Shown here in pieces: positions 19,237 to 31,954 of a stretch of 64,000 nucleotides of DNA. The translations under genes and the position numbers were made by a program. This DNA comes from Agilicoccus flavus. Lineage in GTDB: Bacteria > Actinomycetota > Actinomycetes > Actinomycetales > Dermatophilaceae. The stretch spans positions 1 to 64,000 of the forward strand of contig NZ_JACYXE010000009.1 of assembly GCF_014857905.1 (NCBI RefSeq). Reading direction: 5' to 3'. The stretch's first letter is position 1, and each line of letters begins with the position of its first letter. The notes beneath the pieces were generated by a model that made no database searches, was not told the origin of the DNA, and worked only from the letters and a program-made list of their open reading frames with translations.

Positions 19237-20457
19237 TCAGCGGGCCGTCGTGAACGCGCCCGTGGCCCGGACGACCCCGGCGTGGTCGACGACGTAGGTG
19301 TGGCGGCCCGACAACGGCGCGATGGACGCGGTGACGCTCCGGGTGACGGTCGTGGCGGACGCCGAGCGGGCCCGGCCGGCGGCGTCGCGCACGGTGACCC
19401 GGACCCGCCCCTTCGTCCCGCGCGGGAACGACACCGAGACCCGGACGCCGGTGCGCGACGGCACGACCCGCGTCGCCCAACCCGACGCGGACACGGCCCC
19501 ACGGGCGGACGCGGCGGGCCGTGCGGCGTCGAACGCCCCCGCGAAAACGGTGCCGAAGCGCCCGCCGAGGTCGTCGTGGTCGATGCCCGCCGGCTGCTGA
19601 CGGGTCACGGCGAAGCCCCGGGCCTGATACCAGGCGGCGCCGCGCTTCGCGTCGGCGAGAGCGTCGTACCCGTCGTCCGCCGTGCTGCCGTCGTCGTCCG
19701 AGCCCGTGTACCAGAGCAGCGGCATCCGGCTCGACGCCGCGCGGGTCAGCGCGGCGGTGGACGAGCGCGGCGCGCCGCCGCCGCCGGTGATGACGGCGCC
19801 ACCGCGGGTGAACAGGTCGGCGTGCGCGGGTAGGAGGTACTTGGTGATGAGCTGGGACCCGCCGGAGTAGCCGACGACCCACACCGTGTCCGTGCGCAGG
19901 TCGCCCGCGACCTTCCGCGTGAGTGCCGCGACGTACGCGGCGTTGACGGTGCCGTTCTCCCAGAAGGTCGGCGTCCCGGACCGGTCGGGGGTGCGCACCG
20001 AGAGGGTCGCCAGCCCGCGGGCCGCGGCCTGCGCGACGACGCCGCGGCTCCCGCCGAGGGCCCACGTCGACGAGGGATGGTCGTGGCCGTACATGCCGTC
20101 ACCGTCGAGGTAAACGACCAGGCCCTTCGCCGGCGCGGTGAGCCGGGACGTGAACAGGTGGTACGTCGAGCGCGTTCCCGACGGCGCGGTGAACGCCGCC
20201 GACATCCGGTCGGCGGCCCCGGTCGTGCCCGAGGAGACGCCGGGCGCCGCGGCCCGCGACGGGCCGACGGAGGCGGCCGAGGACGCGGCCGGCGACGCGG
20301 CACCGGCCCCGAGGACCGCCGCGGCGACGAGCGCTCCGGCCGCGGACACCCTCCCGACCGTACGCCGTCGGGTTGAGCGCCTCCGGGCGTCGATCGACGC
20401 GTCACCTCCCCGGTCGGACGCGCGGTGACAGGACGACGGGACGGGCTGAAGGGACAC
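19237..20457 (-). CDS. Secreted alpha/beta hydrolase (putative esterase)
   Basis: The protein of about 406 residues has a long basic n-region, a hydrophobic signal core (VSAAGALVAAAVLGAGAASPA, ending near residue 53) and an alpha/beta-hydrolase domain. The strand-loop LVVYLDGDGMYGHDHP and the nucleophile elbow VVGYSGGSQL give a candidate catalytic serine. A candidate acid occurs in TGSDDDGS and a candidate histidine in GIDHDDLGG. The last 100 residues (from about 305) look like a beta-rich Ig-like module (VRVSVSFPRGTKGRVRVTV). GTG 20457 is chosen because GGAGG precedes it at 4-nt spacing. Substrate is unknown. The 270 bp upstream hold no other gene. Confidence 0.7.
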   Translation of the reverse strand: MSLQPVPSSCHRASDRGGDASIDARRRSTRRRTVGRVSAAGALVAAAVLGAGAASPAASSAASVGPSRAAAPGVSSGTTGAADRMSAAFTAPSGTRSTYHLFTSRLTAPAKGLVVYLDGDGMYGHDHPSSTWALGGSRGVVAQAAARGLATLSVRTPDRSGTPTFWENGTVNAAYVAALTRKVAGDLRTDTVWVVGYSGGSQLITKYLLPAHADLFTRGGAVITGGGGAPRSSTAALTRAASSRMPLLWYTGSDDDGSTADDGYDALADAKRGAAWYQARGFAVTRQQPAGIDHDDLGGRFGTVFAGAFDAARPAASARGAVSASGWATRVVPSRTGVRVSVSFPRGTKGRVRVTVRDAAGRARSASATTVTRSVTASIAPLSGRHTYVVDHAGVVRATGAFTTAR

Positions 20458-20727: not shown

Positions 20728-21606
20728 ATGTCCACACGATCGCGGATCGGGCGGACGCCCGGGTCGATCGTCGGCGCGTTCCTTCTCGCGGCGATGATGT
20801 TCGTGACGGCCGGGTGCGGCAGTCCCAGCCGACAGGTGGATGCGCTGCCCAGCGACTTCGTCGAGGCCCCCACCGCGTCGGCCGCTGCGCGAGCCAGGTA
20901 CGGCAAGGCGATCGACACGGCGTACCGGGAGATCACGACCTTCAGCCTCCGGCAGTGGTTGCAGCCCGAGCTGCTCGACCCGTCCGCCACGAAGAGCGTC
21001 ACCGCCGAGAACCTGACCGAGGGCATCGACGGCCGACTGCGGCCGTCCACCCGCCCGCACTGGGCGGGCCTGGTGGACCGGGCCATCGCCGGTGACGCGG
21101 CCGCGCGACTGGACGTCGCCCTCCTGCGGTTTCACGACTGGCAGACCCCGACGCTGACGCTCGACAGCTCCCCCGTGCGCAGTCAGGCCATCAGTGGCGC
21201 CAAGATCGGCGTCGGCGCGGCCTACGCCGACGGTACGGTCCCCCTCGTCGTCACCTTCCGGCAGCAGGCGCGGGTCGCCCTCGTCAACAAGCGCGCCCCC
21301 TATCCCGCGACGATCACCAAGAACATCACCTTCGCGCTGGTGCCCGCGGCCTCGAAGGCGGCCACCTCGACGACCACTCCGTCGGCCCCGGCGACGAGTC
21401 CTTCGACCTCGGGGACGGCGTCCAGGGCCTCGGCGGCGGCGACCACCGACCCGCAGGCGACCTGGCTCATCAGCGCCTTCGAGGGCACGCTCGACATCGA
21501 CTTCGACCGCGCCGAGAGCGACTCCACCACGACACCCGCGGCGACGGACCCGACCCCCGCGGCCTCCACCGCGAGCGCGGGCACGATCAGCACGTCGGCG
21601 CCCTGA
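20728..21606 (+). CDS. Putative lipoprotein of unknown function
   Basis: The 292-residue protein has a signal peptide whose lipobox VTAGC places the lipidated cysteine at about residue 30. The mature part contains a helical region (YGKAIDTAYREITTFSLRQW) and a beta-rich region (VPLVVTFRQQARVALVNK, ITFALVP). Its C-terminal quarter is almost only S, T, A and P. A purine-rich AAGGGGGGCGAG precedes the ATG. It converges with the M1 peptidase gene, leaving 4 bp between stops. No family is recognised; a surface or wall-spanning role is inferred from the lipobox and the ST-rich tail. Confidence 0.75.
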   Translation: MSTRSRIGRTPGSIVGAFLLAAMMFVTAGCGSPSRQVDALPSDFVEAPTASAAARARYGKAIDTAYREITTFSLRQWLQPELLDPSATKSVTAENLTEGIDGRLRPSTRPHWAGLVDRAIAGDAAARLDVALLRFHDWQTPTLTLDSSPVRSQAISGAKIGVGAAYADGTVPLVVTFRQQARVALVNKRAPYPATITKNITFALVPAASKAATSTTTPSAPATSPSTSGTASRASAAATTDPQATWLISAFEGTLDIDFDRAESDSTTTPAATDPTPAASTASAGTISTSAP

Positions 21607-21610
21607 TCCC

Positions 21611-23038
21611 TCAGCCCGTGACGCCGGACCCGGTCCCCGCGGCGGGCGGCAGCGCCCCGGCGCGTCGCAGGACGGCCACCGCCTCCGGCAGATCCCGCAG
21701 CGCGTAGGCCAGGTCGGCCGGCTGCGCGACGGTCCACGCCCGGGTGCGCATGTACTCCCGAACCGCCTGGTCGAACGCCTCCGCGCCCCCCGCCGCCCGC
21801 GCCCGGTGCAGCGCACAGGCACCGCCCTCGTAGACGGTGTCGACGTAGTCGTCGTCCTTCCCCGCCCCGCCGGCGAAGGACGCCAGAGAGCGCCCCACTC
21901 CGCTGGGCGCGGGCCGGCAGTCGGCGGCGTTCGGCGTCGCGCTGACGAGTTCCTCGGCGTAGGTCGCGAACGCCTCGTCGAGCCACGGATCGCGCCCTTG
22001 GTCGTTGCCGACGAGACCGTAGAAGTACATGTGCGCCAGCTCGTGCAGGATCAGCCACCGCTCGCGGGCGGGGTCGACGTCGGAGAACTGGACGGCGCCG
22101 GGGTACTCGACCCCGTCCGTCACGGCCGGCAGCACGCTGATCCACAACGACGGGAACGGCATCGGCCCGAAACGGGCCTCGAGGGCGGTGACGGCGGCGG
22201 TCAGCCGGCTCGTCCATTCCTGGGCCGTCGCGCGCGACCCGTTCCGCGGCAGGGACAGGACGATGTCGGTGTCGCCGACCTTCGCGGTGCTGCGGACGAT
22301 GTTCCCGACCGTCACGGTCACGTCGCGCACCGCGTCGGCGGAGAACGTGTGCACGCGCCGGCCGTCGGGCGCCGAGCTCGGCTCCCCCTGCTCCTGCCCC
22401 ACGCCGGAGACGACGTCCTGGGCCGGCGCGACCACCTGGAGCCGTTCGAGACGGAACGCCTCGCTCGTCGCGGACTCGCCCACGACGGCCACTGCCGGAT
22501 CCGTGACCCATCCGACGCCGCGTTGCCACGCGAGCAGCGGGAAGGCGGTGCCGAGCCAGGCGATCCGATCCCGCGGCGAGTACCCGATGCGTTCGTCGGT
22601 GCCGGCCCCGAGGGTGACGGCGTAGCTCAGGTCGGCGGTGACGGGTGTGCCCGCCGGCGAGCAGGCCGGCAGCCGCGCGGTGACCAGCGTGCCCGGCCGG
22701 CCCGTGGGGGCGCCGGCGGCGGAGACGGACAGGGGCAGGGCGGCGCCGTCGACCCGCACGTCGCGCACGGTGAGGGAGTTTCCCGTCGAGGCGGTCAGCG
22801 GCTTGTTCGCCCAGGCCCGGAAGACGAGCTCGCACACCCGCCGGTCGGGGGTGAAGGTGACGCGTTCGGTGCCCGTCATCGAGTCGAGGGCCGACGACAT
22901 CGAGTACGTCAGCGACACGACCGGGCGGTCCTCCGGCGGGTCGGGCCGGCCGGTGTCGTCCGAGGATCCGGCGCAGCCGCCGAGCGCCAGTGCGAGCACG
23001 GCGAACCCGGTCACGAAGGGCGTGCATCTGCGCGTCAC
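21611..23038 (-). CDS. M1-type (gluzincin) metallopeptidase lipoprotein
   Basis: The 475-residue protein starts at GTG 23038, which has TATCCT 6 nt upstream. A signal peptide ends in the lipobox ALGGC (cysteine near residue 22). The M1 catalytic site is HELAH plus 18 residues then E (HELAHMYFYGLVG to WLDEAF). The N-terminal part has the beta-sandwich expected for the family (MTGTERVTFTPDRRVCELVF). The family's exopeptidase motif is not the standard GAMEN; the segment GVEYPGAVQFSD lies in its place. It is anchored outside the membrane and downstream of the Pls-like operon (101-bp gap), so it may trim or degrade that system's product. Activity is inferred. Confidence 0.82.
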   Translation of the reverse strand: MTRRCTPFVTGFAVLALALGGCAGSSDDTGRPDPPEDRPVVSLTYSMSSALDSMTGTERVTFTPDRRVCELVFRAWANKPLTASTGNSLTVRDVRVDGAALPLSVSAAGAPTGRPGTLVTARLPACSPAGTPVTADLSYAVTLGAGTDERIGYSPRDRIAWLGTAFPLLAWQRGVGWVTDPAVAVVGESATSEAFRLERLQVVAPAQDVVSGVGQEQGEPSSAPDGRRVHTFSADAVRDVTVTVGNIVRSTAKVGDTDIVLSLPRNGSRATAQEWTSRLTAAVTALEARFGPMPFPSLWISVLPAVTDGVEYPGAVQFSDVDPARERWLILHELAHMYFYGLVGNDQGRDPWLDEAFATYAEELVSATPNAADCRPAPSGVGRSLASFAGGAGKDDDYVDTVYEGGACALHRARAAGGAEAFDQAVREYMRTRAWTVAQPADLAYALRDLPEAVAVLRRAGALPPAAGTGSGVTG

Positions 23039-23044
23039 CCGGCG

Positions 23045-23050
23045 AGGATA
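23045..23050 (-). promoter_or_regulatory. -10 box of a probable leaderless promoter for the M1 lipoprotein gene
   Basis: TATCCT on the minus strand lies 6 nt before GTG 23038. It suggests the peptidase gene can be expressed separately from the upstream operon. Confidence 0.4.
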
Positions 23051-23139
23051 GAGGGCCCGCCCGCGGCGTCGCCGCTCGGACCGCCACCGGTCCACGACGC
23101 GATCGACCCAGAACGGGCGGAGCGGACGGGAGCGGGCGG

Positions 23140-23865
23140 TCACCTCGCCAGGACGGTCGCGACGAGGTCGCGGGCGAGATCGGTCGCCGCGGGCTCGGGC
23201 GGGGTGAGCCCGGCGTCGTCGTACCAGTCGTCCGTGGCCTCCGGATGCGGACCGACCACCCCCACCGTTCCCGCTCCGAAGCCGCAGACGAGGGCCGCGA
23301 CCTGCCCGTTGTCGTAGCGGGCGAGGACGTCGACACCCGACTCGTCGACGTCGAAGACCGGACCGTCCTGGAAGAACACCTGCCGGGGCACGCCGGCCCA
23401 CGTCACGGTCACCAGGGCGTCGCCCTCGTGCCGGACGGTCGCCCCCGGCGAGGAGATGTACCGGTCGGTGTCACCCGGCAGCAGCCCGAAGCCGGGCGTC
23501 TTCCCCGCGAGGTACCCGCCCAGGCAGAACCCGAGGTAACGACCGCCGCCGCGGACGTACTCCCGCAGCAGGTCGGCGCCCCCGGCCAGGTGCGGCCACG
23601 CGTCGTCGAGATCGGGCCCGCCCGGCTGGGCGTAGACCCGGCAACCGCGCAGCGACTCCCGCGAGAGCCGGACCGGCTCGCGAGGACCGACGAACCGGGG
23701 ACGGAGGCCGACCTCGGCGAGGCTGCGGGCCACGGCCTCCGGGCACCCGGGCAGGGCGGCGGGGCCGCGGTACACCAGCGCGTCGGCGGCCTTCTCGGGC
23801 CCCCGCCCGCGGGCCGAGCCGGCCCATCGACGCAGCGCGGCGAGGAACCCGACCTCAGCGGGCAT
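23140..23865 (-). CDS. BPL_N / class I glutamine-amidotransferase-like protein
   Basis: The 241-residue protein resembles the BPL_N domain, a class I amidotransferase-like fold. DALVYRGPAALPG and VYAQPGGPDLDDAW precede the nucleophile elbow YLGFCLGGYLAG (cysteine at about residue 114). A late GVVGPHPEATDDWY supplies the histidine and glutamate of a potential catalytic triad. The biochemical role of free-standing BPL_N proteins is not established; peptidase, amidase or deglycase activity is possible. The ATG at 23865 lies inside the end of the acyltransferase gene (11-bp overlap), so it belongs to the Pls-like operon. Confidence 0.75.
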   Translation of the reverse strand: MPAEVGFLAALRRWAGSARGRGPEKAADALVYRGPAALPGCPEAVARSLAEVGLRPRFVGPREPVRLSRESLRGCRVYAQPGGPDLDDAWPHLAGGADLLREYVRGGGRYLGFCLGGYLAGKTPGFGLLPGDTDRYISSPGATVRHEGDALVTVTWAGVPRQVFFQDGPVFDVDESGVDVLARYDNGQVAALVCGFGAGTVGVVGPHPEATDDWYDDAGLTPPEPAATDLARDLVATVLAR

Positions 23866-25144
23866 GGCGCGGCACGTAGCGGGCCCGGCGGGCCCCCGGG
23901 GTGACGGCCTTCGTCAGGCGCCACATCATCCACTCGAGGGGGCCGCGGCGGAACCGGCGGTTCCAGACGAGCGCGAACGCCGTGAGAAGGAGGATCTGGG
24001 TGGCGAAGTGCCACTCGCCCGGGAGGTCGCCGAGCGGCTCGATGAGCAGCAGGTGCGCGCAGTAGAGCGTGAGCGTCATGCTCCCGGGGACGGCGAGCAC
24101 CCGCAGCCTGGCACCGAAGGAGTGCGACAGCGCGAGCATGAGGCCCAGCACCAGCACAGCGAGCCCGATCGTGTGCAGCAGATCCAACGGCGTGGCCGTG
24201 TGCCGCGCGTCCACGGTGAGCCACCACCAGGAGTCGGTGGGCAGGGTGCCGTCCCCGCCCCACATCAAGGCGTCGGTGAAGTCGTCGAGACTCATGTGCC
24301 CCTGGACGTCCTGCGCGATGCGGCCCCAGACGTCGACGACCTCGACGAGGAACCAGGACAGGGCCGTGACGGCCACCGTGAGGGCGGCCCCACCCGCGAC
24401 GAGGCGTGCGACGACCCGGCGCGACCCGAGCGCGGCACGGCCCAGGCCGAGCCCGACGGCCAGGTAGGCGATCCACGTGAGGGCCGGGTAGAACCCGCCG
24501 AGCGTGAGCGCCTCCAGCGACCCGAGAGGATCGGCGGCCACGGCCCCCAGGGTGAAGTTCGCGGCCGGCGGCGTGGTTCCGAGGGCCGCGCGGATCGCGT
24601 GCCCGACGACCGGGCCGAGCACCGCCCATCCCAGGCCGAACGCGAGGAGCGCGCGGGTCCGCAACGGCAGCAACAGGGTCGAGGCGATGAACAGGACGCC
24701 GTAGTAGGCGAGGATCACCTTGGCGTCGTCGGCCAGGACGACGGCACCGAGCAGCCCGCCGACGAGGATGAGTACGAGGCCTCGCACGACCGGACCGATG
24801 GCCGCCCGGGCCCACGCCGCCCCGCGCGGGGCGACGGTCCGCCCGCTGACGAAGGCCAGACCCACCCCACCGATCACGGCGAAGAGCGCTGCGGCGTTGC
24901 CGGACGCGAGCTGCCAGGCCGCGGTCACGTCGCCGTCGGCGGTATCGGGTGCGACGGTGTGCACGGCGACCATGCCGATGAGGGCGAGCCCGCGCGCGGC
25001 GTCGATCCCGATGAGACGCGAACCGGACGTGGACCGCTCGGGGGGATCGACCGCCTCGGTCACGCAGTCGTGCGGGATCGGCACGTCGGACCCGGCGTGC
25101 AGGGGCGCCTCGGTCCGCACCCCCGTCGTGGCGACCGTCGACAT
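23855..25144 (-). CDS. DUF418/HGSNAT-type membrane acyltransferase family protein
   Basis: The 429-residue polytopic membrane protein has about 9-10 membrane segments. It starts with the family motif SRLIGIDAARGLALIGMVAVHT and ends with the DUF418-like MTLTLYCAHLLLIEP and WNRRFRRGPLEWMMWRLT. Relatives include YeiB and the catalytic domain of heparan-alpha-glucosaminide N-acetyltransferase, which transfer acetyl groups across membranes. The ATG shares one base with the TGA of the synthetase gene (TGATG), so the two are translationally coupled. It may acylate the synthetase product outside the cell; this is inference from context. Confidence 0.85.
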   Translation of the reverse strand: MSTVATTGVRTEAPLHAGSDVPIPHDCVTEAVDPPERSTSGSRLIGIDAARGLALIGMVAVHTVAPDTADGDVTAAWQLASGNAAALFAVIGGVGLAFVSGRTVAPRGAAWARAAIGPVVRGLVLILVGGLLGAVVLADDAKVILAYYGVLFIASTLLLPLRTRALLAFGLGWAVLGPVVGHAIRAALGTTPPAANFTLGAVAADPLGSLEALTLGGFYPALTWIAYLAVGLGLGRAALGSRRVVARLVAGGAALTVAVTALSWFLVEVVDVWGRIAQDVQGHMSLDDFTDALMWGGDGTLPTDSWWWLTVDARHTATPLDLLHTIGLAVLVLGLMLALSHSFGARLRVLAVPGSMTLTLYCAHLLLIEPLGDLPGEWHFATQILLLTAFALVWNRRFRRGPLEWMMWRLTKAVTPGARRARYVPRHAR

Positions 25145-28100
25145 CAGCGACCTCCTGCGGTGGAGCGGGCGGACAGTTGGGCGGGGATGCCCGACCAGGC
25201 GGTGTCCGGAGGAAGGGACTCGCCCTTCATGACGAGGGTGAGCGGCGCGAGGTCCGCGCCCCGGCCGACGTGGGTGTCGTAGAGCACGACGGAACGGGTG
25301 CCGGTGCTGACGTCGTCGCCGACCTCGATCGTGCCCATCTTCATGACGCGGTCCTCGAACAGGTGCGTCTGGAGCGAGGTCTCGGGCCCGATGACCACGT
25401 CGTCGCCGAGGCGGACGAGGTCGAACTCGGTGAGGTAGGTGGTCTCGAGCAGGCTGCGCCGGCCGACGTGCACCCCGAACAGGCGCAGAACCGGCCCGAG
25501 CAGCGGGGTCCCGGTGAGGAGGCCGAGGAGAGCCGGCACCGCCGCGGCCTCGTACAGCCCGGTGACGAACTCGGTGCGGCGCACGAACCGGCTCCACAGG
25601 GGCTCCACGCGAGGCCGGTAGCGGCCGACGAGGATCCACTTGAGGGCGGCGACGACGAGGACGACGGTCAGGCCGAACACCATCGCGGCCGCCGGGACGG
25701 CGAACACCATCGCGAGGACCGGCGCGCCGAGCTCGCCGAGCACGGAGGCCACGTGCAGCGTCGCGAACAGCGACAGGGCCAGCAGCGAGGACGGCAGGCA
25801 GATGCGCAGGGCCTCGATGACGTACCGCTCGACGACGCGCGACCGCGCCGGACGGAACGTCTGTTCGTCGGTGTACTCGTCGAACACCTCCCGCTTGGGC
25901 AGGTAGATCGGCGGATTGCCCAGCCAGGACGTGCCGGCCCGCACCCCGCTCGTGGGCGGGACGGATCCCACCCCGAGGAGCGAGTTGTCGGCCAGGTGGC
26001 TGCCCGACGGCACGAAGGACGCGTTGCCGACGAACGACTGGCGTCCGACCACCGTGGGGCGGAACGCGACGTGCCCGTTGCAGTAGGTGGCGCTGCCGAC
26101 GCTGGCCATGTCGGCGACGAACGATTCGTCACCGAGGGTGAGCAGGTCGGGATCGATGTTGGCGATCGTCGACACCTCGGCCCGGGTCCCGATGCGGGCG
26201 CCGAGGCGGCGCAGCCAGGGCGGGGTGTAGAGCGTCGAGTACAGCGTGTTCGTGAACTGCAGGCTCATCTCGAGCAGCTTGTCGGCGAACCACTTCTCGA
26301 CCCCGAGACGGGAGCGCAGGTGATGGATGCCCACCGGCGTCCGCGGCAGGCCGAACCGGCGCAGGGCGAGGATGAGCAGGCACACGGACATGACGAACAC
26401 CGGCCCGGTGAGGGCGGTGATGACGACCGCGACGAGCTCGGTGGAGGCGAGCAACGCCCACCAGACGAGGGCCACGACGGGCAACATGGCGGCGAGCGGC
26501 GCCAGCTCCAGGGCGACGAGACCGAGCGCGAAGCGCTCCTTGTGCGCGCGGTCCCAGTCGCGGGGAGCCTCGTCGCACGAGGCCATGATCTCGAGGATCG
26601 GCTCACCGACCGACGGCAGGCGCTTGGCCGGGGCCCCCTGCCACGCCTCGCGGGAGGGCAGCGCCGCGCCGGCGGCCAGCGAGGACTGCTCCCGCAGGAG
26701 GGCGCGCTCGCCCACCCGGCACGGGCCGGTGAGCACGCAGTTCGCGGCCACGGTAGCGGCGTCGTCGATGCGCACCCGGCCGATCCGGAGCACCCCGTCG
26801 TGCAGGGAGGCACCCGCGAGGTGGGTGGCGTATCCGACGGTGACGTCGTCCCCGAGGTCGACGAGCGTCGGCAGTGCCACCTTGGCGGTCCCGATGTGGC
26901 AGGCCTGGCCGATCCTCGCGCCGGCCAGGCGCAGGTAGCCGGGCGCGTAGGCCGACCCGGCCAGGTTGCTCATCGGCGACAGCTCCATCGCCTTCCCCAC
27001 GAGCCAGACCCGCAGATGGACGAGACCGAAGAGGGGATGCTCGCCCTCCTGGAGGTCGCGCCCGGCGAGACGGGCCACCACCAGCGGGAGGAGCCAGCGC
27101 TCGGCGAGGTAGACGAGCGGGAAGGTGAGGACGATGCCCTGGAGCATGGCCGACGACGGCTGCCCGCCGTACCACCAGTACAGGAGGGCGAACGGCAGGG
27201 TCGCGATCGCGACGACGATGAAGACGACGGCGAGCTGGGCCGCGCCGAACGCCGCCACCCGTCCGGTGCTCGGACGCCGGGCGGCGCGGTCGACGGGCTG
27301 CGCGAGGGGGCCGTCGGGGGCCTCGGCGCTCGCGAACGCCGCGAGGTCGAGGTGCTCGGCGAGCGCGCGCACGCTGGGGTGGGCGTACAGGTCGACGACC
27401 GACATCGAGGCGGCCCGGGGGTCCTCCCGCAGCCGGGAGGTGGCGTTCGCAGCCGACAGGGAGTGACCGCCGAGATCGGCGAAGAAGTCGGCCGTGACCG
27501 AGAGGACGTCCTCGTCCACCCCGAAGACGGTGGCCCAGACCGACCGCACCCACGTCTCCATCGCCGTGTCCGGCGCCACCACGGCGCCGGTGCCACCGAT
27601 GAGGCGGGGGGTCGTGGGGTCGGGCAGCGCCTTGCGGTCGACCTTGCCGCTGGGCAGCATCGGCGCCTCGTCGATCCGCTCCATGAAGGTCGGCACCATG
27701 TAGGCCGGCAGGCTCGTGCGCATCGCGGTGTGCACCCGCGCCAGCACGGCGTCGGGATTCTCGCCCGGGGAGACGACCACGTATCCCGCGAGTTCGTCGC
27801 CCTGCTCGGCCGAGCGTAGGTGCTTCACGGCGGCGGTCGGCACCGCCGGGTCGCGCATCATCACGCTCTCGATCTCGCCGAGATCCACCCGGTGCCCGCG
27901 GATCTTCACCTCGGCGTCGGCGCGGCCGAGGTAGACGATGTCGCCGTCCTCCTGGACGCGGGCGAGGTCGCCGGTGCGGTAGATGCGCCCGCCGTGCGGA
28001 TCGGTGGGGTGCGCGATGAACTTGTCGGCGGTGAGATCGGGACGGTTGAGGTAGCCCCGGGCGACGCCGATGCCGCCGATGCACAGCTCACCGACCTCGC

Positions 28101-29166
28101 CGTCGGGGACGGGGTTCCGGTCATCGTCGAGGATGACGGCGGTGTACGTGGGCACGGGGACCCCGATCGTCACCGCACGACCGGGCAGCAGACGCGTCCA
28201 CACGCAGGTGACGGTGGCCTCGGTCGGCCCGTACGTGTTGAGCATGCGACGCCCCGGCGCCCACCGCTCCACGAGCTCCGCGGGGCAGGCCTCCCCACCG
28301 ACCATGAGCCCGCGGATCGACGGGATCGTCCGTTCGACGGTGGAGAGCACCGTGGGGACGCAGTACAGCAGCGAGATCGCCCGCTCCTCGAGGAAACGGG
28401 TCAGGCCCGCGCCCACCCGGCGTCCGTCGGTGGGGCCCGCGACGAGGGTGGCCCCCACGCACCACGTCGGCCACACCTCCTCGATCGCGAAGTCGAACGA
28501 GATGGTCATGCCCTGGTAGACCCGGTCGGAGGGCTGGACGTCGTACACCTCGCTGATGACCTGCAGGAAGTTGCAGATGCTCGACTGGGCGACGTCGACG
28601 CCCTTGGGTCGGCCGCTGGAGCCGGACGTGTAGATGATGTACGCCGTCGGGTCGCCCTCGACCGGCACCTGAGGGCGCGTCCCCGAGGACCGGCGGATGA
28701 CCTCCAGCTCCTCGTCGAGGACGAGCATCCGGGCGTCGACGTCCTCGAGGCGGCCGGCGAGGTCGGCCGTCGTGATGACGATGTCGAGGCCGGAGTCGGA
28801 GGCGAAGTACTCGACCCGGTCCGCCGGCGACGCAGGATCGATCGGCACGAAGGCCGCGCCGGTCTTCTGCGCCCCGAGCAGGGCGACGTACATGAGGTAG
28901 CTCCGGTTGAAGAACAACCCCACCCGCGCCCCGACGGGCAGGCCGGCGGACAACAGGTGGTTGGCCAGGTGGTTCGCCTCGTCGTCGAGCTCGCGATAGG
29001 TGGCGGCGCCCCCCTCCCACTCCAGCGCGGTGGCATCGGGGCGCCGATCGCACGAGGCCTCGAAGTAGTGGTGCATCCGGGCCTGCAGAGGCGGTCCCCC
29101 GGGCCATTGCCCCGGGCGGTCCGACACGGTCCCGTCAGTCCGGGCGCGCAGGCCCTCCGTAGTCAT
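25144..29166 (-). CDS. Pls-like membrane NRPS: adenylation, PCP, membrane segments and three beta-helix domains
   Basis: The 1340-residue protein has an adenylation domain (residues about 35-530): YIIYTSGSSGRPKG, GGEACPAELVE, NTYGPTEATV, YRTGDLAR, RGHRVDLGEIE, SGKVDRKALP. A carrier domain follows with GGHSLS (serine about 570). The C-terminal half alternates at least six membrane segments with three left-handed beta-helix domains (from about 740, 985 and 1230; LAGARIGQACHIG, LGARIGTRAEVS, GVHVGRRSLLE). This is the layout of epsilon-poly-lysine synthetase Pls and the NRPS terminal-domain family. My manual pocket reading is D-F-E-Y-M-G-T-V-T-K; the acidic residue would suit a basic amino acid. 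Condensation and termination domains are absent. The product is unknown. Confidence 0.88.
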   Translation of the reverse strand: MTTEGLRARTDGTVSDRPGQWPGGPPLQARMHHYFEASCDRRPDATALEWEGGAATYRELDDEANHLANHLLSAGLPVGARVGLFFNRSYLMYVALLGAQKTGAAFVPIDPASPADRVEYFASDSGLDIVITTADLAGRLEDVDARMLVLDEELEVIRRSSGTRPQVPVEGDPTAYIIYTSGSSGRPKGVDVAQSSICNFLQVISEVYDVQPSDRVYQGMTISFDFAIEEVWPTWCVGATLVAGPTDGRRVGAGLTRFLEERAISLLYCVPTVLSTVERTIPSIRGLMVGGEACPAELVERWAPGRRMLNTYGPTEATVTCVWTRLLPGRAVTIGVPVPTYTAVILDDDRNPVPDGEVGELCIGGIGVARGYLNRPDLTADKFIAHPTDPHGGRIYRTGDLARVQEDGDIVYLGRADAEVKIRGHRVDLGEIESVMMRDPAVPTAAVKHLRSAEQGDELAGYVVVSPGENPDAVLARVHTAMRTSLPAYMVPTFMERIDEAPMLPSGKVDRKALPDPTTPRLIGGTGAVVAPDTAMETWVRSVWATVFGVDEDVLSVTADFFADLGGHSLSAANATSRLREDPRAASMSVVDLYAHPSVRALAEHLDLAAFASAEAPDGPLAQPVDRAARRPSTGRVAAFGAAQLAVVFIVVAIATLPFALLYWWYGGQPSSAMLQGIVLTFPLVYLAERWLLPLVVARLAGRDLQEGEHPLFGLVHLRVWLVGKAMELSPMSNLAGSAYAPGYLRLAGARIGQACHIGTAKVALPTLVDLGDDVTVGYATHLAGASLHDGVLRIGRVRIDDAATVAANCVLTGPCRVGERALLREQSSLAAGAALPSREAWQGAPAKRLPSVGEPILEIMASCDEAPRDWDRAHKERFALGLVALELAPLAAMLPVVALVWWALLASTELVAVVITALTGPVFVMSVCLLILALRRFGLPRTPVGIHHLRSRLGVEKWFADKLLEMSLQFTNTLYSTLYTPPWLRRLGARIGTRAEVSTIANIDPDLLTLGDESFVADMASVGSATYCNGHVAFRPTVVGRQSFVGNASFVPSGSHLADNSLLGVGSVPPTSGVRAGTSWLGNPPIYLPKREVFDEYTDEQTFRPARSRVVERYVIEALRICLPSSLLALSLFATLHVASVLGELGAPVLAMVFAVPAAAMVFGLTVVLVVAALKWILVGRYRPRVEPLWSRFVRRTEFVTGLYEAAAVPALLGLLTGTPLLGPVLRLFGVHVGRRSLLETTYLTEFDLVRLGDDVVIGPETSLQTHLFEDRVMKMGTIEVGDDVSTGTRSVVLYDTHVGRGADLAPLTLVMKGESLPPDTAWSGIPAQLSARSTAGGR

Positions 29167-29548: not shown

Positions 29549-31954
29549 ATGCCCTCGCTGACCTGGACCGAGGCGGTCGAGCGCGCTCGCCTGCTCACCG
29601 TCGATCGCTACGACGTCACCCTGGCGCTGGACGAGGGCGAGACGTATCGGTGCCGCACCGTCGTCACGTTCGACTGCGCCGAACCGGGGGCGACCAGCTT
29701 CGTCGAGCTCGCCGATCCCCTCACGCTCGAGGCCACCCTCAACGGCACCCCGGTCGCCCACGCCGACGGGCGCATCGCCCTGCCGGACCTGGCGGCGAGC
29801 AGCGAGCTCGTCGTCGAGGCGAGCATGCCGACGGTGACGAACGGCGACGGGATGCACCGCTTCGTCGACACCGACGGCCGCACGTACGTGTCGGCCTACA
29901 CCGGGATGGACATCGCCTCCCGCGTGTTCCCGTGCTTCGACCAGCCCGACCTCAAGGCCCGGATCGCCCTGGCGGTCACCGCGCCGGACGGCTGGACCGT
30001 CCTCGCCCACGGCACCCCGACCCGCGAGGCCGGCGCGTGGTGTTTCCCGACGACCCCGCCGATCTCGACGTACCTGTTCGTCGTGTGCGCCGGGCCGTGG
30101 CACTCGCGCACGTGGGAGCACGCCGGCCTGCCGTTCGGGTGGCACGCCCGGGCCGCGAAGGCGGCGGACCTCGACCGCGACCTCCCCGAGCTGCGGCGCA
30201 TGACGGAGGCGTTCTTCGACCACTACACGACGTTCTTCACGCCGCCCTACCCGTTCGCGAGCTACCACCAGGTGCTCGTGCCGGGCCACAACTGGGGCGC
30301 CCTCGAGACGCCCGGCGCCGTCACCTTCCGGGACGAGCTCCTCCCCCGCGCCGCTCCCACCGCCCTCGAACAGCAGGGGCTCGCCGACACCATCGCCCAC
30401 GAGATGGCGCACATGTGGTTCGGCGACCTCGTGACGATGCGCTGGTGGCAGGACAGCTGGCTCAACGAGTCGTTCGCCGACTTCATGGGCTACGAGGTCG
30501 CGGGGCGGGCCGGGGGCTTCACCGACGCGTGGAGCGAGTGCGCACTGCTGCGCAAGCCCACCGGCTACCGCGCCGACGAGCGTCGCTCGACGCACCCGAT
30601 CGCCGAGGACGCCGCCGCACTCGTCGACGTCGACACGGCGTTCTCGAACTTCGACATGATCACGTACGCGAAGGGCAACGCCGTGCTCCGGCAGCTCGGC
30701 ACGTGGCTGGGGCGGGAGACCTTCCTCGCGGGCACGAACGCGTACCTGTCGGCGCATGCGTTCGGCAACGCCGACCTCGCCGACTTCCTCGCGGCGATGG
30801 ACTCCGTGAGCGACCGCGACGTGCGCGGCTGGGCTCAGCGCTGGCTGCGGACGACGGGCTTCGACACGATCCGGGTGACACGCGAGGGCGACGTCCCGGT
30901 GCTGACCAGGTTCGGGAGCCGGCCGCACCGGTTCACCGTCGCCGGCCTCGGGCCCGGGGGCGACCTCGTCGCGACCCGGCTCGTCGACCTCGACGACGAC
31001 CCGGTGAGGCTGCCCGAGTTCGCCGGCCTCGCCGTCCTGCCCAACGCGGGCGACGAGACGTTCGCGCGGGTGCGCCTCGACGAGGCGAGCCGGTCCGGCA
31101 TCGCGTCGTCGCTGTCGGGCATCGCCGACCCGCTGACGCGGGCGGTGGCGTGGCACACGGCCGCCGACATGGTCGGCACCGGCGACCTCACCGTCTCCGC
31201 CGCGTTCGACCTGCTCGAACGCCACCTGGGCCCCGAGCGCAACGAGGTGATCCTCGAGGGGGTGCTGCGCACGTTCGGGCGCCTGCGCGGCTCACTCGTC
31301 TGCGACCCGGCGGACCTCCCGCGCGCGCAGTCCGTCCTCGCGGCCACGGCCGCCCGGCTCGCCGACGGGGTGCCCGGTGCCGCCCGGGCGGCCCGGGAGG
31401 TGCTCGCCGCGAACACCGCGGACGTCGCCGCGCTGCGGGCGCTCCTTGCCGACGGCTCGACCGAGCCCTCGCTGCGCTGGACCGCCGTCGGCCGGCTCGT
31501 CGCTCTCGGGGAGGATCCGGGCCTTGTCGAGGACGAGGCCCGGCGGGACGGCAGCGACGCCGGGCGGCTCGCCGCGATCACCGCCCGCGCGATGATCCCG
31601 ACGCCGGCCGCGAAGACCGCGGCGTGGTCGCTGCTGGTGGACGGCACCCCGTCGAACCGGGAGTGGTCGGCGGGCTCCGCCGGGTTCTGGACCCCCGGTC
31701 AGGACGAGCTGACCGGGGACTACATCGGGCGTTACCTGGAGCGGGCGCCCGGCATCGCGGCCGAGCGCGGCCAGGGGTTCGCGCGGCTCGTCGGGGCGAG
31801 CGGACCGGTCCTGCCGTTGCCGACCGGGCGGCTGCGGGGATTGCGTGACGGCCTCGCCGCGGCCCTCGCGGGCGACCTGCCCCCCGTCCTGCGCCGCCAG
31901 TGGGACGACCTGCTCGACGACACCGACCGCGCGTTGGCGGTCCGGGCGGGCTGA
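29549..31954 (+). CDS. pepN: Aminopeptidase N (M1 family)
   Basis: The 801-residue cytosolic zinc aminopeptidase has an N-terminal beta-sandwich (YDVTLALDEGETYRCRTVV), FPCFDQPDLKA, the zinc site HEMAHMWFGDLVTMRWWQDS followed by WLNESFADF (HExxH-x18-E), the catalytic tyrosine in MITYAKGNAVLRQL and a helical ERAP1-like C-terminal half. The exopeptidase motif normally reading GAMEN is GALET, which keeps the substrate-binding glutamate but replaces the asparagine. It is divergent from the Pls-like operon, so involvement in turnover of that product is possible but general peptide turnover is the default role. Confidence 0.93.
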   Translation: MPSLTWTEAVERARLLTVDRYDVTLALDEGETYRCRTVVTFDCAEPGATSFVELADPLTLEATLNGTPVAHADGRIALPDLAASSELVVEASMPTVTNGDGMHRFVDTDGRTYVSAYTGMDIASRVFPCFDQPDLKARIALAVTAPDGWTVLAHGTPTREAGAWCFPTTPPISTYLFVVCAGPWHSRTWEHAGLPFGWHARAAKAADLDRDLPELRRMTEAFFDHYTTFFTPPYPFASYHQVLVPGHNWGALETPGAVTFRDELLPRAAPTALEQQGLADTIAHEMAHMWFGDLVTMRWWQDSWLNESFADFMGYEVAGRAGGFTDAWSECALLRKPTGYRADERRSTHPIAEDAAALVDVDTAFSNFDMITYAKGNAVLRQLGTWLGRETFLAGTNAYLSAHAFGNADLADFLAAMDSVSDRDVRGWAQRWLRTTGFDTIRVTREGDVPVLTRFGSRPHRFTVAGLGPGGDLVATRLVDLDDDPVRLPEFAGLAVLPNAGDETFARVRLDEASRSGIASSLSGIADPLTRAVAWHTAADMVGTGDLTVSAAFDLLERHLGPERNEVILEGVLRTFGRLRGSLVCDPADLPRAQSVLAATAARLADGVPGAARAAREVLAANTADVAALRALLADGSTEPSLRWTAVGRLVALGEDPGLVEDEARRDGSDAGRLAAITARAMIPTPAAKTAAWSLLVDGTPSNREWSAGSAGFWTPGQDELTGDYIGRYLERAPGIAAERGQGFARLVGASGPVLPLPTGRLRGLRDGLAAALAGDLPPVLRRQWDDLLDDTDRALAVRAG

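What the first reader, a model, noticed from the sequence alone, without database searches (positions are those of the whole stretch)
21611..29166. Pls-like synthetase operon with acyltransferase, amidotransferase-like and lipoprotein peptidase genes
Seen: an A-PCP protein with six or more membrane spans and three beta-helix domains is translationally coupled (TGATG) to a DUF418-type acyltransferase, which overlaps a BPL_N protein, followed by an M1-type lipoprotein peptidase. Known: the layout is that of epsilon-poly-lysine synthetase and the NRPS terminal-domain family. Inference: the operon makes an isopeptide-type amino-acid polymer or conjugate, modifies it at the membrane and trims it outside. 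The pocket reading (D-F-E-Y-M-G-T-V-T-K) suggests a basic substrate but is manual. I know of no described product for this gene combination.
Basis: partly seen in the sequence, partly recalled or inferred. Interest (0 to 1): 0.78.

Follow-up and report, generated by a model that had tools for sequence, protein, structure and literature searches.

The report
Uncharted Pls-type polymer gene cassette
This stretch holds a conserved set of genes, found in many actinobacteria, that probably builds a chain of one small positively charged amino acid and then modifies and trims it at the cell surface; the enzyme type is known, but this branch, its partner genes and its product appear undescribed.

Summary
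On the minus strand lie a 1340-aa Pls/PosA-family synthetase (TIGR02353 523 bits, cut-off 423), a 429-aa membrane acyltransferase, a BPL_N protein and an M1 lipoprotein; the first three overlap. The acyltransferase is better called HGSNAT/TmAT than DUF418: its predicted fold matches human HGSNAT (Z 23) and it carries the DxxRx10H motif. BPL_N has a class I glutamine-amidotransferase fold and an intact Cys-His-Glu triad.

The gene set is real: of 67 relatives' loci with 6 kb downstream, 55 have the acyltransferase, 57 BPL_N, 51 both, 27 also M1; 32 other Pls-family loci (all Streptomyces) have neither. The synthetases form a separate clade with a near-constant pocket, DFEY(L/M/N)GTVTK, unlike epsilon-polylysine (DAESIGTVVK), poly-ornithine (DMEHNGTVSK) and dat/ask-linked (DFECLSVVTK) members.

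Best reading: a short cationic isopeptide homopolymer, acylated while crossing the membrane and trimmed outside. Monomer unresolved: Phe in the pocket points to Dab/Dap, but 17 of 42 clade genomes lack both known supply routes, and some operons carry an arginine-dihydrolase-like gene, favouring ornithine slightly. Whether the published poly-Dap synthetase belongs to this clade could not be tested. New variant of a known kind.

The parts
25144..29166 (-). Pls/PosA-family synthetase, 1340 aa: A domain about residues 35-514, PCP 539-606 (Ser569), terminal domain 642-1329 with conserved His1268
   Evidence: TIGR02353 523.4 bits; AMP-binding, AMP-binding_C, PP-binding; pocket code; conserved residues
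27625..29064 (-). adenylation domain with pocket DFEYMGTVTK
25180..27243 (-). membrane terminal (polymerising) domain, C1-C3
   Evidence: TIGR02353
23855..25144 (-). HGSNAT/TmAT-type transmembrane acyltransferase, 429 aa, translationally coupled (TGATG) to the synthetase
   Evidence: HGSNAT_cat and Acyl_transf_3 over cut-off; model pLDDT 89, HGSNAT Z 23.3; D48xxR51-x10-H62; junction
23140..23865 (-). BPL_N protein, class I glutamine-amidotransferase fold, triad C114/H207/E209
   Evidence: PF09825 49.5 bits; triad 68 of 68; model pLDDT 92.8, PLP-synthase glutaminase Z 20.4
21611..23038 (-). M1-type peptidase lipoprotein, 475 aa if GTG 23038 is the start
   Evidence: Peptidase_M1 38.1 bits; HExxH-x18-E 30 of 30, lipobox Cys 27 of 27 rows with a letter
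20728..21606 (+). convergent lipoprotein of unknown function, with relatives at sister loci
   Evidence: relatives in 7 of 80 clade loci, 0 of 32 controls; no Pfam match
19237..20205 (-). probable secreted hydrolase (esterase-like by eye only; no Pfam match over cut-off); start uncertain
   Evidence: 67% identical to the homologue beside the Mobilicoccus synthetase; relatives in 15 of 80 clade loci, 0 of 32 controls

Best explanation
The operon makes, exports, modifies and clears a short cationic homopolymer joined through side-chain amines. Steps: (1) the A domain activates one diamino acid and loads it on the carrier Ser569 [shown: motifs and pocket; inferred: monomer]. (2) The membrane terminal domain, with one His conserved (95% or more of rows) in all three groups compared, joins monomers repeatedly and passes the chain out [inferred from Pls, PosA and PDAP synthetase]. 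(3) The coupled HGSNAT-type protein carries an acyl group from cytosolic acyl-CoA across the membrane to an acceptor outside; by proximity and by analogy with HGSNAT, which acetylates an amine, the likely acceptor is a free amine of the polymer [fold and motif shown; acceptor inferred]. (4) The BPL_N protein hydrolyses an amide of substrate or product, or supplies ammonia to release the chain as an amide [fold and triad shown; reaction inferred]. (5) The M1 lipoprotein trims the polymer outside and may protect the producer, as PldII does for epsilon-polylysine [active site and lipobox shown; substrate inferred]. Monomer: ornithine slightly favoured (about 0.4), diaminobutyrate or diaminopropionate about 0.35, other 0.25.
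For: TIGR02353 over cut-off. Conserved His1268 and carrier Ser. Pocket: 74 of 74 complete codes begin DFE and 73 of 74 end GTVTK. E239/T322/(S,T)331 (GrsA numbering, recalled) match the trio that holds the ornithine side-chain amine in PosA (PMC10522769, passages). Gene set: of 67 loci, ACT 55, BPL_N 57, both 51, with M1 27; 32 control loci have ACT 0, BPL_N 0. Phosphopantetheinyl transferase genes in 18 of 80 loci, in some inside the operon. ACT: HGSNAT Z 23.3 over 297 residues, next family (GWT1) 13.8; D48 and R51 49 of 49 and H62 57 of 57 rows with a letter, F88, G93, R121 and Y361 conserved, matching TmAT marks in PMC12423673 (passages). HGSNAT acetylates an amino group (PMC11357348, start of abstract in a listing). 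Ornithine: 17 of 42 clade genomes lack both SbnB and Dat over cut-off; a DDAH/arginine-dihydrolase-like gene in 15 of 80 loci, in L084 within the overlapping run SYN-DDAH-BPLN-ACT-BPLN2; the Nigerium pocket DFEHNGTASK differs from PosA at two of ten positions.
Against: No product is known. Phe at the second pocket position is stated for PDAP/PDAB synthetases (PMC10522769), so a chain shorter than ornithine is quite possible, and the window's own genome has SbnA and SbnB over cut-off, though in another cluster; 8 of the 17 genomes counted as lacking supply have weak, sub-cut-off SbnB-type matches. The arginine-dihydrolase-like gene passes Pfam's DDAH model but is under the cut-off of every NCBIfam enzyme model, and occurs in only part of the clade. 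10 of 67 loci lack BPL_N, 12 lack ACT and 38 lack M1; S. cattleyicolor shows none of the three. Second BPL_N copies with export-like N-termini do not fit an ammonia-supply role. The clade M1 is not sister to the pls-type-linked M1.
Confidence: 0.45

Rival explanations
1. It is a poly-Dab or poly-Dap gene set: the clade is a branch of the known PDAB/PDAP synthetases and the partner genes merely tailor a known polymer.
For: Pocket shares D-F-E and V-T-K with the dat/ask-linked synthetases (DFECLSVVTK; dat and aspartate kinase confirmed in L175, and annotated in a plasmid example with pocket DFECLSAVTK). PMC10522769 gives Phe at position 2 for PDAP/PDAB (passages). The own genome has SbnA and SbnB over cut-off. 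The poly-Dap synthetase EXU85975 could not be placed.
Against: Tree separates the clade (36 rows, SH-aLRT 99) from the four DFECLSVVTK rows. dat or ask beside the synthetase in 0 of 80 clade loci. 17 of 42 clade genomes lack both SbnB and Dat over cut-off, although the pocket is nearly constant.
Confidence: 0.3
2. It is a second epsilon-polylysine-type locus: the synthetase activates lysine and the M1 enzyme is its PldII.
For: Same family; M1 gene beside the synthetase, as in 23 of 24 polylysine-code loci; published pls-pldII pairing (PMC8117764, Results section read).
Against: Pocket differs at four of ten positions from DAESIGTVVK, including Ala to Phe at the length-setting position; about 33% identity to that branch; the own genome already has a polylysine-code synthetase with an M1 gene beside it; the M1s are on separate branches.
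Confidence: 0.08
3. The product is not a homopolymer but an amino-acid conjugate: the terminal domain transfers the loaded amino acid to a lipid, glycan or small amine, which the acyltransferase then caps.
For: [quoted passage not shown] Pls itself can pass its chain to alcohols (PMC9606270, passages); no polymer is reported for any clade member in what I read.
Against: The terminal domain is homologous over its length to polymerising family members, and the residues conserved in all three groups are kept.
Confidence: 0.12

Closest known systems
epsilon-poly-L-lysine synthetase Pls with PldII (Streptomyces albulus)
   Same: A-PCP-terminal domain architecture (TIGR02353); an M1-type peptidase gene beside it (23 of 24 polylysine-code loci)
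   Different: pocket DFEYMGTVTK, not DAESIGTVVK; about 33% identity; HGSNAT-type and BPL_N genes absent from all 24 such loci; M1 on a different branch
delta-poly-L-ornithine synthetase PosA (Acinetobacter baumannii)
   Same: six of ten pocket residues identical (D235, E239, G301, T322, V330, K517; GrsA numbering recalled) and Ser/Thr at 331; the Nigerium relative differs from PosA at two of ten positions
   Different: about 35% identity; no ACT, BPL_N or M1 match in the 9.9 kb around the PosA relative read here; Phe instead of Met at the length-setting position
gamma-poly-L-Dab synthetase type (dat and ask beside the synthetase)
   Same: D-F-E and V-T-K in the pocket
   Different: C278, S301, V322 in the pocket; dat and ask adjacent in 3 of 4 there and in 0 of 80 clade loci; separate branch
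HGSNAT and the TmAT superfamily
   Same: fold (Z 23.3); DxxRx10H, FxxxxG, TM3 Arg and Tyr361 (motif list from PMC12423673)
   Different: no solved homologue found by sequence; the TM1 His follows the AT3-type DxxRx10H motif; acceptor unknown
class I glutamine amidotransferases (Pdx2, HisH) and gamma-glutamyl peptidase 1
   Same: fold (Z 20.4 and 16.1) and Cys-His-Glu triad
   Different: no synthase partner identified; some loci carry a second copy with an export-like N-terminus

Membership tests
Pls/PosA family synthetase (TIGR02353) | terminal domain over the curated score | tested here: met
   523.4 bits, cut-off 423.1
Pls/PosA family synthetase (TIGR02353) | A domain with Glu at pocket position 3; PCP serine | tested here: met
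Pls/PosA family synthetase (TIGR02353) | six membrane spans in three pairs | tested here: inconclusive
   three main hydrophobic blocks by hydropathy, single spans not resolved
Pls/PosA family synthetase (TIGR02353) | makes an isopeptide homopolymer | not testable with these tools
   needs expression and mass spectrometry
epsilon-polylysine synthetase | lysine pocket DAESIGTVVK | tested here: not met
   DFEYMGTVTK; reference residues seen in the alignment with PDB 7wew
epsilon-polylysine synthetase | groups with polylysine-code members in a tree | tested here: not met
   separate branches, SH-aLRT 100 and 99
poly-Dab synthetase (dat-ask linked) | dat and ask beside the synthetase | tested here: not met
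   0 of 80 clade loci; none seen by the same queries in the window; own genome has no Dat match at E <= 1e-90
poly-Dab synthetase (dat-ask linked) | pocket DFECLSVVTK | tested here: not met
   6 of 10 positions shared
poly-Dap synthetase EXU85975 | same clade as the named enzyme | not tested
   its sequence was not obtained here
delta-poly-ornithine synthetase PosA | pocket DMEHNGTVSK | tested here: not met
   6 of 10 positions shared by the window protein, 8 of 10 by the Nigerium relative
TmAT superfamily (HGSNAT branch) | 10-TM fold | tested here: met
   model pLDDT 89.2; HGSNAT Z 23.3, rmsd 4.0, 297 aligned
TmAT superfamily (HGSNAT branch) | DxxR in TM1, FxxxxG in TM2, Arg in TM3, Tyr in TM9 | tested here: met
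   D48 and R51 49 of 49, H62, F88 and G93 57 of 57, R121 59 of 59, Y361 57 of 58 rows with a letter; motif list from PMC12423673; helix placing from the model
class I glutamine amidotransferase fold | fold and Cys-His-Glu triad | tested here: met
   Z 20.4; C114, H207, E209 68 of 68
class I glutamine amidotransferase | glutaminase activity coupled to a synthase | not testable with these tools
   no partner enzyme identified
M1 metallopeptidase | HExxH-x18-E and the conserved Gly/Glu of the exopeptidase motif | tested here: met
   H454/E455/H458/E477 and G431/E433 30 of 30, numbered on the 597-aa open frame; motif names recalled
PldII (polylysine-degrading enzyme) | same M1 branch as the M1 beside polylysine-code synthetases | tested here: not met
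   separate branches, the deeper join weak at 86; about 30-35% identity

The most novel reading that the evidence does not exclude
The gene set makes an undescribed class of natural polymer: a homopolymer of a short diamino acid, probably ornithine, whose free amines are acylated while it crosses the membrane by a dedicated HGSNAT-type enzyme, so that a toxic polycation leaves the cell charge-masked and is later unmasked or trimmed outside. It would be, as far as I know, the first transmembrane acyl transferase serving an NRPS-like homopolymer; the synthetase clade is seen in at least 12 named actinobacterial families, the acyltransferase beside it in at least eight, and also on plasmids.
Probability: 0.25. 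Interest if true: 0.8.

Novelty: new variant of a known kind. Interest (0 to 1): 0.56.

Why it matters
Few isopeptide homopolymers are known, and they are used or studied as preservatives, antivirals and cell-penetrating carriers. A clade with its own pocket and partner genes points to a further polymer, probably a modified one, and gives a concrete route to it: culturable strains carry it, such as the plasmid-borne set (synthetase, BPL-N, HGSNAT-type, coupled) of Rhodococcus erythropolis R138. It would also give an acceptor for one HGSNAT-type bacterial acyltransferase and a function for one BPL_N protein.

Tried and rejected
Spurious reading frames: rejected, all four proteins are conserved with intact catalytic residues.

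'DUF418' label: rejected as the best name (below cut-off). Sequence search of the acyltransferase alignment against solved chains found nothing; the fold search did. The BPL_N alignment gave only weak sequence matches (best E 0.053).

BPL_N as a marker unique to the gene set: rejected in part. Of 297 genomes of the order, 13 have a match at E <= 1e-20; 3 lie by a clade synthetase (285-413 bits), 10 (169-194 bits) do not.

M1 as a PldII orthologue: rejected (the deeper join is weak at 86, and the tree used about half of the rows).

Streptantibioticus cattleyicolor as a carrier of the whole set: rejected. Its pSCAT locus has a clade synthetase (pocket DFEYVGTVTK) but no ACT, BPL_N or M1 match within 8 kb.

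Literature: none of six pocket strings was found, but the polylysine string was not found either and PMC10522769 prints codes with spaces, so this says little. Joining BPL_N or HGSNAT words with the synthetase gave two unrelated papers (listing only); two searches gave nothing on the set. The library lacks most subscription journals, so this is no proof of absence. Two paper searches are unused.

Limits: named relatives are the best 80 of 351 matches, so the census leans towards close relatives; near-duplicate strains are not collapsed. The 32 controls are all from one genus (Streptomyces), 24 of them polylysine-code, 4 DFECLSVVTK, 3 DIWQSTADDK, 1 unassigned. The family tally lists one locus under a cyanobacterial family, probably a clash of the name Rhodococcus. 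The synthetase tree used 57 of 105 full-length rows, without bootstrap. The Piscicoccus copy (L049) reads in two frames; it was left as it is. Dat was sought only at E <= 1e-90, so weaker aminotransferases are not excluded. Gene starts come from a simple home-made caller; 10 of 59 acyltransferase rows lack the first motif through a late start.
Full report
What is there. The window lies in a genome of 4.2 Mb; the synthetase's nearest named relatives are from Dermatophilaceae and Kytococcus. On the minus strand are a 1340-aa synthetase (25144-29166), a 429-aa membrane protein (23855-25144), a 241-aa BPL_N protein (23140-23865) and an M1-type lipoprotein (21611 to about 23038). Synthetase and membrane protein share TGATG; the BPL_N gene overlaps the end of the membrane protein's gene by 11 nt. 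The synthetase passes TIGR02353 (Pls/PosA family) at 523 bits against 423 and has A, A-C-terminal and carrier domains.

The pocket. As a check, the same columns give DMEHNGTVSK on an Acinetobacter PosA relative, the code printed in PMC10522769 (passages), and the alignment of a polylysine-type A domain with PDB 7wew shows the residues of DAESIGTVVK in epsilon-polylysine synthase itself. Of 74 complete clade codes (window included), all begin DFE and 73 end GTVTK; the fourth and fifth positions vary. Twenty-six rows among the window's relatives, 25 genes since one gene appears twice, read DAESIGTVVK, as do 24 Streptomyces loci. Four Streptomyces rows read DFECLSVVTK, three of them beside dat and ask (confirmed for one by family models), the published context of poly-L-Dab synthetase (PMC8117764, Results section read).

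A separate clade. In a tree of 57 of 105 full-length rows the window's clade is a branch of 36 rows (SH-aLRT 99), apart from the polylysine-code branch (100) and the DFECLSVVTK branch (98) (quick method, some long branches). Of 297 genomes of the order, 89 match the clade's terminal-domain profile at E <= 1e-60; three hold a clade synthetase (1070-1340 bits) and the next best match is 370 bits; all three have a strong BPL_N match within about 4 kb. Members also lie on plasmids. In Rhodococcus NJ-530 and R. erythropolis R138 NCBI's annotation reads Pls/PosA synthetase, BPL-N, HGSNAT-domain protein in a row. The pSCAT locus of Streptantibioticus cattleyicolor has the synthetase but no match to the partners within 8 kb.

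The gene set. Of 80 named loci, 67 have at least 6 kb downstream: acyltransferase 55, BPL_N 57, both 51, both plus M1 27 (M1 in 29 in all), DDAH/arginine-dihydrolase-like 12, hydrolase 13, phosphopantetheinyl transferase 17, dat or ask 0. Of 32 other Pls-family loci, all Streptomyces: acyltransferase 0, BPL_N 0, DDAH-like 0, hydrolase 0, lipoprotein 0, phosphopantetheinyl transferase 2, M1 25. Orders vary: SYN-ACT-BPLN-M1 in Dermatophilaceae, with an opposed hydrolase gene before M1 in Geodermatophilaceae; SYN-BPLN-ACT-M1 in Pseudonocardia; SYN-DDAH-BPLN-ACT-BPLN2, all overlapping, in one Dactylosporangium. Sixteen of the 67 loci lack ACT or BPL_N, among them all six Streptomycetaceae loci, which lack ACT.

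The partners. The membrane protein passes HGSNAT_cat and Acyl_transf_3 but not DUF418. Its model (pLDDT 89) matches human HGSNAT at Z 23.3 and GWT1 at 13.8; no other listed entry reaches 5. It has D48xxR51-x10-H62, F88xxxxG93, R121 and Y361, marks listed for the TmAT superfamily in PMC12423673 (passages): D48 and R51 in 49 of 49 rows with a letter, H62, F88 and G93 in 57 of 57, R121 in 59 of 59, Y361 in 57 of 58. BPL_N (pLDDT 93) has the class I glutamine-amidotransferase fold (Z 20.4 to the PLP-synthase glutaminase, 16.1 to gamma-glutamyl peptidase 1) and Cys114/His207/Glu209 in 68 of 68 rows; some loci carry a second copy with an export-like N-terminus. M1: HExxH-x18-E in 30 of 30 and lipobox Cys in 27 of 27 rows with a letter.

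The monomer. For Dap or Dab: Phe at the second pocket position, stated for PDAP/PDAB synthetases (PMC10522769, passages). For ornithine: the trio E239, T322, S/T331 that holds the side-chain amine in PosA; the Nigerium code DFEHNGTASK; and supply. Of 42 clade genomes, SbnB (Dap route) is over cut-off in 14 and Dat (Dab route) in 22; 17 have neither, 9 of these without any SbnB-type match and 8 with weak ones, while the pocket hardly changes. In 15 of 80 loci a gene related to dimethylargininase and arginine dihydrolase is near the synthetase; it passes Pfam's DDAH model (47 bits, cut-off 23) but not NCBIfam's enzyme models (213 and 148 bits, cut-offs 300 and 450). Arginine dihydrolase makes ornithine (recalled biochemistry). 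I hold ornithine at about 0.4 and Dab/Dap at about 0.35. The window's own genome has SbnA and SbnB in another cluster but no Dat.

How it likely works. Loading, polymerising and export by the synthetase follow the family's studied members (Pls, PosA, PDAP synthetase: PMC8117764, PMC10522769 and PMC4668381, passages and some sections). Acylation outside by the TmAT protein, hydrolysis or amidation by BPL_N and trimming by M1 are inferred from fold, motifs and gene order. The pls-linked peptidase PldII degrades polylysine (PMC8117764 and PMC9223678, passages), but the clade's M1 is on a different branch, so that role is by analogy.

Verdict. Observation confirmed, interpretation partly supported. 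The kind is known; the clade, its pocket and the TmAT/BPL_N pairing were not described in the papers I could search. The main open risk is that the published poly-Dap synthetase belongs to this clade, which I could not test.

Noticed in passing
own genome G000:C11, L050:7219-16126: A second Pls-related cluster: SbnA and SbnB genes over cut-off, a carrier plus terminal-domain protein without an A domain, and a separate A-PCP protein with pocket DIWQSTADDK; the same split type recurs in Streptomyces (L182, L193), in one protein in L187. Looks like a Dap-dependent system.
   Followed up: partly
own genome G000:C28, L051:6622-12046: A polylysine-code synthetase (DAESIGTVVK) with an M1 gene beside it, downstream of an oligoribonuclease-like gene (by eye) and a membrane protein gene; the same arrangement in Mobilicoccus (L044).
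   Followed up: partly
L044 / L052 (Mobilicoccus pelagius): Polylysine-type and clade synthetases lie within about 15 kb, facing each other, with two phosphopantetheinyl transferase genes and the convergent lipoprotein between or beside them.
   Followed up: partly
window 20728-21606: Lipoprotein without any Pfam match, relatives at 7 of 80 clade loci; in Nigerium it is inside the run of genes.
   Followed up: partly
window 29549-31954: Full-length aminopeptidase N (M1) gene, divergent from the synthetase; not taken as part of the set.
   Followed up: partly
L197-L206: A wider family of BPL_N proteins, at least one a predicted lipoprotein (L197, by eye), in other contexts in other genera of the order.
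   Followed up: partly
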